A DNA stretch of 64,000 bases, from assembly GCF_036370855.1 (NCBI RefSeq), contig NC_088102.1:21185001-21249000 (forward strand). Direction: 5' to 3'. This document shows positions 30,901 through 42,900 of the stretch, piece after piece. The position numbers were made by a program, and so were the translations under genes. Numbering within the stretch: the first letter of the stretch is position 1; the number at the start of each line of letters is the position of its first letter. The notes under the pieces were generated by a model. The model had not been told where the DNA came from, made no database searches, and was given only the letters and a program-made list of their open reading frames with translations. The DNA comes from Dromaius novaehollandiae (lineage: Eukaryota > Chordata > Aves > Casuariiformes > Dromaiidae).

Positions 30901-33900
30901 AGTTCTATTTGCAATCAGCCATTTTGAAAAAGGCTTATTTAAATGTGTACTGTTATTACTTGTAATGTCTGATGAATAAATGCTATAGATTAGCTTGAGT
31001 TCTTGGTTATCTTACTAAATTTTTACTTTGAGGAACAACTAGTTAATTCATCCACTGAGGCTCTAGTAATGTTTCTTATTAAGTAGAAAAACATGTAAAA
31101 GAAGTGATGATTCTGTTGCTTATAAATCCCTCTTTCAGATTTTAGTCTCCCAATTATATTTTTTAATACTATCATCTTAAACTAACCCTAAAATTTAAGG
31201 AATATTTTTATATAAACATGAATATAGGGCAGGGGGACATGGGAAGCCTTCTGCATATGTTGTTATGGAGTGCACTGTGAGTGTCTGCAGCTCTGTGTCC
31301 TTGGTACTTATTTTTCTATGTGGAAGTTCTGCAACCTCTAGTAAGTTTGTTCTGCTGAACTATCTCTATAGTTAGGTAGTTTTTCTGACTGTCTAACCTA
31401 AATCTTGCTATGTGTGCTTCGGATGTTTATCTTTTTCCTGATCCTGGCTTCTGCGTAGAACTAATCAGCTCCTTCCTGTTTCAGAGATCAATCAAGTATT
31501 TGAATATTGTTGTCATATGTTTTCTCAGTCTTCTGTTCTTAAACAGTCTTGACAACCTTTCTTTCTAGGTCATATTTTATTAACTCTTATCTCTTATGTG
31601 AAACAGTTAGAATCCAAATCATTCTAGAAATACGCTGTTCAAAAATGAGTACAGGGTTCTGTTGAGGTCTTAACTGTTTAAGGGATCCTTCCTGATTACT
31701 CAGTGTATTCTGTATACTTAACTGTTTATATAACCTGCTGTAGTTTACCCTCTTCCCGAGCAGTAAGATAGTACTATTTTCCCTTAGTGAACTACTAAAA
31801 TCCTCAGAACCATTTCAGCAGAGCTGAAGCAGAGCTTCTGCATACTTTGCATAGAGCAGAGCTACATCTGTTAGAGCATTTCTGTTGTACTAGGTCAAAA
31901 TCACTTATGAATAAATAACTTCAGGCTATTGTTCTAGCTTGTCAAATTCTTCCTTGCTTGGTATCCTACACAAATTTGAGGGATGTGCTTTGTCATGAAG
32001 TCTTTAAGAAAAATATTAATATCATATCTGTGACAATATTTTCTGAATCTTACCTTAGAAATCCTTCCATTTTTTTTCAGTGGGTTGATCACTGTTGCTT
32101 GTCTAGCAATTTTGCTACTTGAGGTACATTGTAAAGTAGGGCATTCAGTCTGAACTTCAGTTATGAGAGTATTGTGGGAAACAGCTTCAAAAACCTCAGC
32201 TCCCTAGGGTTTTGATTACTTAACTTTGTCTCTAAAAATCCTTTCTTTTCAGAAGTGTGGTTTGTCCATCTGTGCGTCTTCTCTGATCTCTTTTTTTCCC
32301 AATCAATTCAAACACATGCATAGGTTTTTTTTTTTTTTTTTTTGAAGGTGCCTTATCAGTGAACTGGCAGAGTTCTGTCTTTCAGTCAGGTATTTAAAAT
32401 CTAGTATCTTAGAATTGTTTGGGGCTAGAAACAGGAAATCGGCACTTGAGTGTAAGAAAAGATAGCTGATAAATTTTGGGGATAGACATTGAGATCTCTC
32501 TTAGCAATGTTTTATGATGGCAAAAGAACCTAGAGTTCTGAAATGTTGAATATGTTTGCCTCTGATCTCTTCTGATTACTGAAGAACTTCGACTTAGTGT
32601 ACTGAAGGTTAATTAACACAAAATCAGAATAGTTAAAACATCTCTAATGTATTTGTTCTTTAACATGTGCCAAGTTTATAAGAGGGAGTTTAGGGGTAGC
32701 CTAAAAGTTAAATTGACACAGGTTTGCAACATCCACCTAGCATCACTGTGGCTTCTGCAATTATGAAAAAAACTGTACTAAAATCATGCTTATTTAAAAA
32801 AAAGTTTGGTATCATATTGTTATTTATATCTATTAGTGCGGAAGGAGAAAACTTTTCTCAAAATTTATCAACAGATTCTGATCTGAAATGATTTTTTTGA
32901 TTAAGGGATACTTGATAAGACCTTTCATGCTAGGAAGTTTGGAATTGCAAGGACCTTACTGTAAATGTTTCTATCATTATGAATTTTTCCTGTGGTAAAC
33001 TTTTATCATCTTTGAAGGACTTCAAGCAGTTATACAGAATTTCATTGTTACTTTTTTTTTTGCTTCATGTTCTTTGGATCTTGGTGCTTATTGCTACCAA
33101 TGCTTCGACTTTGCATTGTGTCCCTGTTTGAGTACATGTCAAAGTAGAAATACTCCTTATTCTCCTTCACATTGCTGGAGGACTATTAGAAGAAATCATT
33201 AAGGAGTTCATTCCTACTGATCTTCAAATGATTAGAAAAAAATCTTCCTTATGCATGGTTACAAGGTCTTTTCTATTTCAAAACTTCAAACCTGTTTTCT
33301 CTCATGCTTTTGGAGGGATCACGGTTAACTTTCACTTCTGATCACTTGTGGAGATGTCCACCTCCACACTCCGGTCAGTATGATTAAGTTAACTTAGTGT
33401 GACTGACTTTGAGATTAAATCCATTACTTGTATGCAAAGGGTGGAGTCAGTATGTTGAGAGTGACCGAGTGCAGTGTTTGTGTGCATGTGGTGTCAAAAA
33501 TAATCCAAGTGATGAGGCAGCTTTTTTTAGTGTAGTTTTCTGAATGTCATAGATAACCCTGCCATGTTAAAAATAACGCTTGTGTTAATAAGTTGTTAGT
33601 TGTTGTTATGGCTTTCCTTGAAAAATGGGAATTTTTCTTATCCATTCTGCTCTGAAGACAAATGCTCCCAATGACTCCTCCTACAGTCCTTAAATTGTTT
33701 TCAATCTTATATTTTCATGTTGCCTCACTGATGAAGGCTGTAGTTTAAGTGGTATTGTCTGTTGCTAAGGTCCTTCGACAGTCTTTGGACAGACTGGGTC
33801 TAAGGAACATTGGCATCGTCGCTGCGGATGGAAATTGGAACATTTCAAAGGAGATGATAGTTGATCCCTATCTTAATGATTCTGTTCAGGTAGTTGGGTA

Positions 33901-39900: not shown

Positions 39901-42900
39901 AATGAGGCTTATCAGGCATGATTTGCCCTTGGTAAATCCATGCTGTTGTTCCCGGTCATCCTCTCATCCTTCATGTGCTTGGAAATAGCTTCTAGGAAAA
40001 TTTGTTCTATAATCTTCCCAGAGACTGAGGTTAGGTTGACTGGCCCACAGTGTTCCAGATCCTCCCTTCTTGAAGACAGGCATGACAATTGCCTTTTTCT
40101 TGTTATCAGGAACCTCCTCTGATCATTAAATACTTTAGCCTTGGTCTGTATGTTAAACTTGTAAATCAAATATTGCCTTATTCTAATGTAAAACGAACAG
40201 GAAAATACAATACAAATGTAGTATTAATGTTGCTTTCAGACAAAGATGTTAAGACTTTGGGAAGGAAATCTTGATGTTTCAGACTACATCTGCCCAACCA
40301 CACATAAGCTAGTTCAGATTCCGGTCTGTGAAAAAGATCTCAAAGTATTGTTTTCTGTAGTTAGTGTTCCCTGTTGGAGAAGACTATATATTGTAGAAAT
40401 ATACAGGATGTTTGAAGGTACTTGGGCATTTGATGTTTGAATTATCAGTACAGAAATACAGCAAACTGTTTAGGGGCTTGCTCTTCTGTTCTGTGTGGGC
40501 TTCTGGATTTCAAGAAATTGCCTCCTTTAAGGCTCACTCATATGTGGCACTGGATTTGTCTCTGATTCTCAAGGCCTCAAGTGTCTCTTGGGAAATGTAT
40601 GCTCATTGCAATTTTGAAGTTTGAAATAAAATGTAGTTGAGTAATAAGGTGTGAATATATGTGTTGGTGTATTTTTCCTTTGATTGCATTTAGGAAGAGC
40701 TGATCTCATTTGTGTTACTTCATTGTTAAACTGAAATAGTCAATTAGTTAGGAGAATAGGTGAAATGATCTCCTTGTATTCTAAATTAAATGCTTGTTTT
40801 GTTTTTACAAGGACTATGCAGTTAATGTTTAGTTATCTTTGCTTGTAGCTTAACTCTAAGCCTTGTAACATCTAAATGGCTGATCTGCACATAGACTATC
40901 TTGCATGACATGCCTTTGCCTTTAACTTTATCTGTAGTTTTGTGTGTGTAGGAAAACAAGAATCAAATGTTTTTCATTTTTTTTGCCATGTGCTTTGGGG
41001 TTTGTCATGGTAGATGAATAACTTGTCCTTTCTGGAAGGCCCTTTGGGCTTGACAGTGTTTGCTACATTTTGATATAAGGGTTTGTTGGAGTTGTGGGGA
41101 TAGGGGAGTGTTAAAATATGTTCAATTGTTCAATTAGTGCTGAAGGTGATACTGCCTTCCCCAATAATAAATATTTGAAAAAATGAAAAACTTTTTTTTC
41201 CTCCCTACTCTCTGTTCTTTGCTGTCTTTTAAAGCTGTTAAGATACACATTGGATAAGCATGGCCTGCAGCAAGTGAGGATCATAGCCAGTGATAGACTG
41301 TGGGAGCCCATTTCCTTTGTCTTGCTGCTTGACTCTGAGCTCCACGGAGTGGTCGATGTGATTGGGTAGGGGGTTCTCTTTTTCATTTGTGATTTGTTCT
41401 CAGTTTGTCTTTATTTGCTTATTTACAAATAGCAAAGCTAAAGCTTTACCTCTCTGTGTTTTATCTGCAACTAAAAGTCTCATACTGTAATCTTTCTTAC
41501 TAACACATGTCAAATCACATAGATTTTTGTCCTGGTGGCAAATTGGACCCATTAATCAGTCTCCCATCATGGGGAAGAATCCTTTTGGCTGTAGTTGCAC
41601 TTTTGATGAACTTAAAATTTTTTGGACAACTTTGTTTATTCTGAGAGTTGGTTTGGTTCTTATTTGGTATGCAAAAAAAGTGCTTTAACTTTACAGCCTT
41701 ATATACAGCCTTGTATTACTGACTTCTATCAATCTATAGTAACAAACTTGCATAATCCAGAAATGAATTGCAACTATGACTCTTTTTAGCTAAACTAATG
41801 TCTTCATTCTTAGTTTCTATTTTCTTGTGATGGGAGGGATATGTTTGGATAGTAGTATGCAGCAAGCTGACTTGCTTTTCTATTTCTGGGTTTCATCATA
41901 TAATGATAATATTTTGCAAAGTAGTAGACTGAATTTGAGGTTAAATATTGACTTGTCTGCTGAATAGAAATGTTAGTAAGACTTGCTGATTAATTTTTCT
42001 TCACTGTAGCTCTAAATTATTAGGATCCTTAATCTTGCCTGACCCAATCAGATGCTTGAAACGTAACTGTTCCTGCTTCAACTTGAGTTGTCTTTTCTAT
42101 TCATCTTTACAATCTGACCCATAGTAGGTGTATAAATAAAGATTTCCCCTCCAAACACAGGCAATACAGGGTTTTTAACTTTAAGGACATCACATATAAC
42201 ATGTACAAAAAAACCCAAAACATAAAACTAAAACAACAACAAAAAAACCTAAAACAACAAAAAGAAAACCCCTTTTTGTCCTTGAAAAATATTCTGAACA
42301 ATAAAAGGTATCTTAATACTTTCTTGCAAGTGGAGACTTGGATCATATGTAGATCAACAGGTGAAAGCGGTTAAAACTCACTCTGACCAGATGCAAATCC
42401 ACGGATGTCTGGAAACTGTGGAGCTGTGTTACCATGATCCCATGGCAATGAGCACGTTTCCTTTCCAATTTTGGCAGCCACAAGTGTGCAGTCGGTAGGT
42501 TTCCTGAAGCTGAACTAGTTCATACTGTCTCAGTAAGCTATAGTTACTTAACTATGTGCAAGAAGTGTAAGTCCATACTGTGATTCAGCCTTAACAGGGA
42601 ATTGAAACACTCTGTAGTGGATAATCAGCTGGCTACTGGACATTCAGTGGTGCTCATCTCTTCATTTATTTTTATATATATATGTATTTTTTTAAACTGT
42701 GGAAATATTTCAAATAGCCATGATTTTACATGACTGTACATAAAATCAATTTTGGACTCAATCTCATTGTGATCTGTGAAGCCTCTCATGAGATAAGCTG
42801 GATGGGAAATCAGTTAAAGCTGGTGCTTTTTTGTCTATTTTTGTTTCATTTTGCACTGTTTGCATCCAGGCTTCATTGGCAAGATATTGCAATGGCTGGA

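What the first reader, a model, noticed from the sequence alone, without database searches (positions are those of the whole stretch)
33770..41365. Two mutually exclusive versions of GALC exon 7
Between exons 6 and 8 there are two complete candidates for exon 7: 7a (128 nt) and 7b (131 nt), 7337 bp apart. Both are open, have GT/AG sites, start in phase 0 and end in phase 2, and their peptides align end to end (17 of 43 identical by hand count). Exon 7b is clearly the counterpart of human exon 7. I know of no described alternative exon 7 in GALC, but I could not check. If used, it gives a second lysosomal galactosylceramidase isoform from one gene.
Basis: partly seen in the sequence, partly recalled or inferred. 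Interest (0 to 1): 0.88.

Follow-up and report, generated by a model that had tools for sequence, protein, structure and literature searches.

The report
Ancient alternative exon in GALC
The gene for the enzyme that breaks down myelin lipid (the Krabbe disease gene) carries, in this bird, two interchangeable versions of one exon; the less familiar version is found from sharks to birds, so many vertebrates probably make two forms of the enzyme while mice and humans appear to make only one.

Summary
The window holds a complete 17-exon GALC gene with two homologous, open, GT-AG-bounded copies of exon 7: 7a (33770-33897, 128 nt) and 7b (41235-41365, 131 nt). Either copy alone gives a full open frame (680 or 681 aa); both or neither shift the frame. 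7a is not a chance open frame: a profile of 100 distinct 7a peptides from non-birds finds it at E = 3.7e-27. Nor is it bird-specific: 124 proteins retrieved with 7a queries carry it, from sharks, rays, chimaera, coelacanth, lungfish, sturgeons, teleosts, amphibians, tuatara, squamates and birds. Many are auto-annotated as GALC 'isoform X2'. Two come from contigs of 2.25 and 2.47 kb, too short for introns, which look like assembled mRNA. Exon 7 lies between the exons with the two catalytic glutamates; the catalytic and substrate residues checked are in shared exons, so the 7a form should be an active GH59 enzyme with an exchanged barrel segment. My literature searches found no description. Mammalian loss fits mouse and human data but was not tested directly. 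Splicing in this species, the mechanism of exclusion and the functional difference remain inferred. It is a new, deeply conserved member of a known kind (mutually exclusive exons).

The parts
18757..28291 (+). GALC exons 1-6: 18757-18945, 19610-19678, 20961-21024, 22973-23086, 25740-25879, 28253-28291; exon 6 (39 nt) encodes IWNER with the proton-donor Glu and ends in phase 0
   Evidence: tblastn with recalled human GALC, splice sites, spliced translation, residue mapping
33770..33897 (+). exon 7a, 128 nt, [43 protein letters not shown] + 2 nt; acceptor AAG, donor GG|gtaagt
   Evidence: profile E 3.7e-27; present in 124 of 124 proteins retrieved with 7a queries
33890..33895 (+). internal alternative donor CAG|GTAGTT inside 7a (120-nt exon) that would permit in-frame 7a-7b double inclusion
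   Evidence: protein sequences of gene models P0001, P0039, P0048 fit the same junction
41235..41365 (+). exon 7b, 131 nt, [44 protein letters not shown] + 2 nt; acceptor AAG, donor GG|gtaggg; counterpart of mouse/human exon 7
46498..59905 (+). GALC exons 8-17: 46498-46653, 48232-48356, 49534-49661, 50134-50223, 51504-51593, 52753-52897, 53443-53623, 56039-56202, 57855-57931, 59762-59905 (stop); exon 8 encodes LWSSED with the nucleophile Glu

Best explanation
A tandem duplication of GALC exon 7, older than the common ancestor of bony vertebrates, left two homologous exons, 7a and 7b, in one gene. The transcript uses one or the other. Exons 6 and 8 have fixed phases (0 and 2) and either exon 7 bridges them, whereas including both full exons or neither shifts the frame, stops early (codon 250 or 231) and should be removed by nonsense-mediated decay. 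The result is two lysosomal GH59 enzymes from one gene that share signal peptide, both catalytic glutamates, the substrate-binding residues checked, the beta-sandwich and the lectin domain. They differ in the 43/44-residue piece of the TIM barrel between the two catalytic residues. Shown: both exons, their frames and sites, wide conservation of 7a, one locus found in the genome, and 6-7a-8 joined in two proteins from transcript-sized contigs. Inferred: that those contigs are mRNA, that this bird splices 7a, that exclusion is by frame plus regulated splicing, that the 7a form is active, and that the two forms differ in substrate, activator binding, stability or tissue.
For: Full gene model with two open isoforms. 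Profile match E 3.7e-27 from non-bird 7a. 7a in 124 of 124 proteins retrieved (chosen because they resemble 7a), from sharks to birds; V1, L2, R3, D20, W23, D32 and L35 are identical in 124 of 124 and present in the window. P0019 (frog-like, 662 aa on a 2250-nt contig, 12 members) and P0096 (catfish-like, 659 aa on a 2469-nt contig, 9 members) join 6-7a-8. Twelve of 124 models contain 7a followed by all or part of 7b, so both exist in one gene in teleosts, squamates and birds. Tree of 20 7a, 13 7b and 63 bacterial segments: 7a clade support 0.988, 7b 0.904. Pfam Glyco_hydro_59 scores 409.1 bits for the 7a isoform and 405.8 for 7b. Catalytic and binding residues are kept outside exon 7 (residues named in PMC12429000 passages). 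Both exon 7 acceptors end AAG; the other 15 GALC acceptors end CAG or TAG.
Against: No RNA data for this species. Database isoforms are mostly automatic predictions. Apart from the AAG acceptors, the splice sites of 7a and 7b lie within the range of the constitutive exons of the gene, so they do not by themselves mark alternative exons. In ten models that hold both exons, 7a varies more than 7b (mean pairwise identity 64% against 74%), so constraint on 7a is real but weaker there. Frame exclusion is not absolute because of the internal donor and acceptor. 7b was not seen in sharks; only 'isoform X2' labels hint at a second form.
Confidence: 0.86

Rival explanations
1. 7a is a decaying relic in this lineage: conserved elsewhere, but no longer spliced in this bird.
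For: Acceptor ends AAG; at residue 17 the window has V, where 119 of 124 have I; no RNA data.
Against: Frame, both splice sites and all seven fully invariant residues are intact; 39 of 43 residues match two eagle isoforms; good donor gtaagt, score 8.90.
Confidence: 0.06
2. 7a acts mainly as a frame-shifting (poison) switch: joining 7a to 7b truncates the protein and lowers GALC output.
For: Full 7a + 7b gives a stop at codon 250.
Against: A poison exon need not conserve a GH59-like peptide; the 7a peptide is conserved in the 124 retrieved proteins and joined directly to exon 8 in P0019 and P0096.
Confidence: 0.05
3. Both exons are used together in frame through the internal donor in 7a or an internal acceptor in 7b, giving a 721-aa enzyme with a duplicated barrel segment.
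For: Both joins are in frame in the window, and the proteins P0001, P0039, P0048 (donor) and P0007, P0041, P0043 (acceptor) fit them.
Against: An extra strand-helix-strand unit should break an eight-fold barrel (inference); these look like gene predictions that force both exons into frame (inference); the internal donor scores 5.99 against 8.90 for the normal one.
Confidence: 0.02
4. Assembly or paralogue artefact: 7a belongs to another GALC-like gene.
For: None found.
Against: All 16 matches of a bird GALC query in the genome are exons of this one locus in order (19 candidates scored), and the order 7a-7b recurs in 12 of 124 other vertebrates' models.
Confidence: 0.01

Closest known systems
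Mutually exclusive exon pairs born by tandem exon duplication (e.g. OGDH exons 4a/4b; start of the abstract of PMC7969005 seen in the listing)
   Same: Two homologous neighbouring exons, one used per mRNA, exchanging one segment of an enzyme.
   Different: Here the exchanged segment lies between the two catalytic residues of a lysosomal hydrolase; the exons are 7.3 kb apart, so exclusion by close spacing is unlikely; no regulator is known.
Mouse/human GALC (PDB 4CCC, 3ZR5), 17 exons
   Same: Exon 7b type; same catalytic and binding residues.
   Different: Described with one exon 7: mouse exons 7-10 are stated to be in all splice variants (PMC7584660 passage) and human GALC to have 17 exons (PMC3052420 passage); no 7a is mentioned in the passages seen.
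Predicted 'galactocerebrosidase isoform X2' of sharks, coelacanth, frogs, teleosts, squamates, birds
   Same: Same 7a peptide between exons 6 and 8.
   Different: Automatic annotation as far as the labels show; my ten literature searches found no paper that describes it.
Bacterial GH59 proteins (L006-L085)
   Same: The equivalent segment aligns with both exons and, like 7a, lacks the extra residue of 7b (63 of 63 aligned).
   Different: Read as single open frames without introns; overall about equally similar to 7a and 7b (36 of 63 closer to 7a).

Membership tests
Mutually exclusive exon pair | Two adjacent homologous exons between the same constitutive exons | tested here: met
   17 of 43 identical; each profile finds the other copy (E 3.2e-11 and 8.8e-9)
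Mutually exclusive exon pair | Interchangeable phases; either alone keeps the frame, both or none do not | tested here: met
   caveat of the internal donor/acceptor
Mutually exclusive exon pair | Valid splice sites on both | tested here: met
   GT-AG on both
Mutually exclusive exon pair | Transcripts carry one or the other | tested here: inconclusive
   7a-only proteins on transcript-sized contigs P0019, P0096; no reads counted; a 7b-only protein is known from mouse
Mutually exclusive exon pair | An active exclusion mechanism (spacing, RNA structure, factors) | not tested
   spacing of 7337 bp argues against steric exclusion; RNA pairing was not searched
GH59 galactocerebrosidase (7a isoform) | GH59 catalytic, central and C-terminal domains | tested here: met
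   PF02057 409.1, PF17387 168.6, PF21708 265.9 bits, all over cut-off
GH59 galactocerebrosidase (7a isoform) | Two catalytic Glu and substrate-binding Thr, Trp, Asn, Arg | tested here: met
   positions 107, 149, 195, 196, 271, 393 of the 7a isoform
GH59 galactocerebrosidase (7a isoform) | Galactosylceramide hydrolysis | not testable with these tools
   needs an enzyme assay

The most novel reading that the evidence does not exclude
Jawed vertebrates ancestrally make two functionally different galactocerebrosidases from one gene by choosing the barrel segment between the catalytic residues. Mammals lost the 7a form, so the human enzyme lacks half of an ancient pair, and some lineages (perhaps catfishes) instead lost 7b. 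The two forms would differ in substrate range, saposin use or tissue.
Probability: 0.4. Interest if true: 0.82.

Novelty: new member of a known kind. Interest (0 to 1): 0.7.

Why it matters
GALC deficiency causes Krabbe disease, and the solved structures found here are of the mouse 7b form. A second form kept from sharks to birds would be a natural, selection-tested variant of the barrel segment that contains Krabbe mutation I250T (exon 7; PMC3052420 passage). It could show which changes the fold tolerates and what GALC does beyond myelin turnover, and it warns that fish, frog and chick GALC studies may mix two isoforms. It is testable at once with public RNA-seq.

Tried and rejected
Chance open exon: rejected; open AG-GT segments of this size are common (15 of 137), but the homology is far beyond chance. 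Third copy of exon 7: none better than E 3.4 with the 7a profile or E 0.15 with the 7b profile. Second GALC gene: none found. '7a is the ancestral exon': only partly supported. The extra codon is private to 7b (63 of 63 bacterial segments lack it), but overall similarity to bacteria is undecided (by identity to the window's copies 29 of 63 closer to 7a, 23 to 7b, 11 ties; by substitution score 36 of 63 closer to 7a), and in the tree the 7a stem is the longer one (0.47 against 0.21). Unusual splice-site strength: rejected as evidence; pyrimidine tract and donor scores of 7a and 7b lie inside the range of the other exons, and only the AAG acceptors stand out. Structured RNAs: no Rfam hit in the window. 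Tandem repeats between exons 6 and 8: three short simple arrays, nothing relevant.

Literature: ten searches of open-licence PMC. Searches asked for GALC or its enzyme names with splicing, exon or isoform terms; 20 and 61 for mutually exclusive exons in general; 29 for zebrafish GALC; 30 for the structure. None of the listed papers describes an alternative GALC exon 7 as far as titles and abstract starts show, but lists were capped (15 of 63, 10 of 474) and most papers were seen only as listings. Seen further: PMC12008523, section 13 read, other passages: GALC exons reconstructed in 110 orthologs, exon skipping in a flycatcher and a cichlid, a duplication in a bat, no alternative exon 7 in the text; the legend of its Fig. 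10 marks 'a new exon' in red, which I could not see and which could be an unexplained sighting of 7a. Passages only: PMC5764952, PMC10002607, PMC12429000, PMC5031207, PMC3052420, PMC7584660. Figures and supplements were not available.

Mammalian absence of 7a: no mammal in the 27 hits or the 120 listed of 632, but one search also missed squamates that do have 7a, and 512 hits were not listed, so this is not proof.
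Full report
What is there. The window contains a complete GALC gene on the + strand, 18757-59905, 17 exons plus one extra exon 7. Among the retrieved proteins, the assembled protein is closest to bird GALC (89.7% to Pitangus sulphuratus; the first eight subjects listed are birds). In the genome (1.468 Gb) no other GALC was found. Exon 7a is 33770-33897 (128 nt) and exon 7b is 41235-41365 (131 nt), both starting in phase 0 and ending in phase 2.

Frame logic. 6-7a-8 gives 680 aa and 6-7b-8 gives 681 aa, both ending at the natural stop. 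Including both full exons stops at codon 250 and skipping both stops at codon 231. The exclusion by frame is not absolute: a CAG|GTAGTT donor 8 nt before the end of 7a, or an AAG 8 nt inside 7b, would allow an in-frame double inclusion of 721 aa, and the proteins of several database gene models fit these joins (P0001, P0039, P0048; P0007, P0041, P0043). I take these as gene-prediction artefacts, which is an inference.

More than chance. An open AG-128/131-GT segment is not rare in these introns (15 of 137). The protein evidence is decisive. A profile from 100 distinct 7a peptides of non-birds scores the window's 7a at E 3.7e-27, 7b at 3.2e-11 and nothing else better than 3.4. A 7b profile (ten sequences, window and both bird models left out) scores 7b at 1e-27, 7a at 8.8e-9 and nothing else better than 0.15.

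Distribution. Three protein searches were made. One search gave 6 proteins, all birds, out of 27 candidates. One search gave 27 proteins out of 53 candidates: birds, frogs, sharks, teleosts and one without an organism name. One search, with the shark exon 6-7a-8 segment, gave 632 proteins out of 659 candidates, of which 120 were listed. All 124 distinct proteins retrieved carry 7a. This was expected, since the queries favoured 7a, so it says nothing about how many species lack it. They include sharks, rays, Callorhinchus, Latimeria, Protopterus, sturgeons, Amia, many teleosts, frogs, caecilians, Sphenodon, squamates and birds. Seven positions are identical in 124 of 124 and are kept in the window. 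Many names read 'isoform X2', so the exon is already present in automatic annotation.

Is it spliced? P0019 (closest to frogs, 86% to Hyperolius) and P0096 (closest to catfish, 91% to Pangasius) are full-length 7a proteins read from contigs of 2250 and 2469 nt, standing for 12 and 9 member sequences. A contig that short cannot hold an intron-rich GALC gene (41 kb here), so these are most likely assembled transcripts. I infer this; the source label 'lgn' is not explained. No read data for this bird were available.

Both exons in one gene elsewhere. Twelve of the 124 models contain 7a followed by all or part of 7b, in teleosts including a moray eel and a halosaur, a gecko, a skink, a pigeon and a mockingbird. 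The pair is therefore at least as old as the common ancestor of bony vertebrates. 7a itself is as old as jawed vertebrates. 7b in sharks was not seen.

Origin. In a FastTree of 44 columns, 20 7a, 13 7b and 63 bacterial GH59 segments, 7a and 7b form separate clades (0.988, 0.904) and join each other (0.722). All 63 bacterial segments lack the extra residue of 7b, so that insertion is a 7b novelty. By overall similarity neither copy is clearly the older (29 closer to 7a, 23 to 7b, 11 ties by identity; 36 of 63 closer to 7a by substitution score), and the 7a stem is longer (0.47 against 0.21). In ten models that hold both exons, 7b is more constrained (74% mean identity against 64%). The 7b sample is small and mostly teleost, and two of its rows are identical.

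What the swap does. In human numbering exon 7 is residues 208-251, between proton donor E198 (exon 6) and nucleophile E274 (exon 8). T109, W151, N197 and R396, listed as substrate-binding in PMC12429000 (passages seen), and both Glu are unchanged in both isoforms. Krabbe mutation I250T (old name I234T; c.749T>C, listed under exon 7 in PMC3052420, passage seen) changes a residue that is Val in this bird's 7a. The 7a isoform passes all three GALC Pfam domains, with a catalytic-domain score no worse than that of 7b (409.1 and 405.8 bits). I expect an active enzyme with a changed barrel segment. What differs in function is unknown; altered substrate, activator (saposin A) or tissue use are guesses. 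A structure prediction was not possible.

Regulation. 7a has a pyrimidine tract of 0.65 and a donor score of 8.90; 7b has 0.82 and 5.13. These values lie within the range of the constitutive exons (tracts 0.47-1.00, donors 3.71-11.42), so they prove nothing. What stands out is that both acceptors end AAG while the other 15 in this gene end CAG or TAG. With one gene this is only suggestive of regulation. How exclusion works was not tested.

Mammals. The mouse solved structures are of the 7b type. A mouse paper states that exons 7-10 are in all splice variants (PMC7584660 passage), and human GALC is described with 17 exons (PMC3052420 passage). No mammal appeared among the listed hits. Loss in mammals is likely but was not tested on mammalian genomes here.

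Novelty. Ten searches of open-licence PMC (listed with their limits in Tried and rejected) found no report of an alternative exon 7. A 2025 study of GALC exon evolution in 110 orthologs does not mention it in the section read, though a figure legend there marks 'a new exon' that I could not see (PMC12008523 section 13). The kind of thing, mutually exclusive exons from tandem duplication, is well known. The case, deeply conserved in a disease enzyme and apparently missing in the mammals in which the enzyme has been studied here (mouse, human), is new as far as I could check.

Noticed in passing
window 33887-33895: A second usable donor (CAG|GTAGTT, score 5.99) 8 nt before the end of 7a keeps 7a+7b in frame; models of a pigeon, a croaker and a mosquitofish (P0001, P0039, P0048) fit it.
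   Followed up: partly
window 33767-33769 and 41232-41234: Acceptors of 7a and 7b both end AAG; the other 15 GALC acceptors end CAG or TAG.
   Followed up: partly
window 9042-10220 (-): Intact 392-aa single-exon G-protein-coupled receptor beside GALC; looks like GPR65, which neighbours GALC in human (both recalled).
   Followed up: no
window 39748-39963 (-): Open fragment in the 7a-7b intron resembling a CR1-type LINE reverse transcriptase (recalled resemblance).
   Followed up: no
P0099, P0105, P0108, P0121 (catfishes) and P0049 (lungfish): 7a-type GALC models without an isoform label, a hint that 7b may be lost or unannotated there.
   Followed up: no
P0011 (Heptranchias perlo) 7a: Carries Thr at the position of Krabbe mutation I250T/I234T (EITG).
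   Followed up: no
window 33839-33847: 7a encodes an N-I-S glycosylation sequon (also in eagle 7a, P0002/P0003) that 7b lacks; not general, since most of the 124 have S, D, E or G at that site.
   Followed up: no
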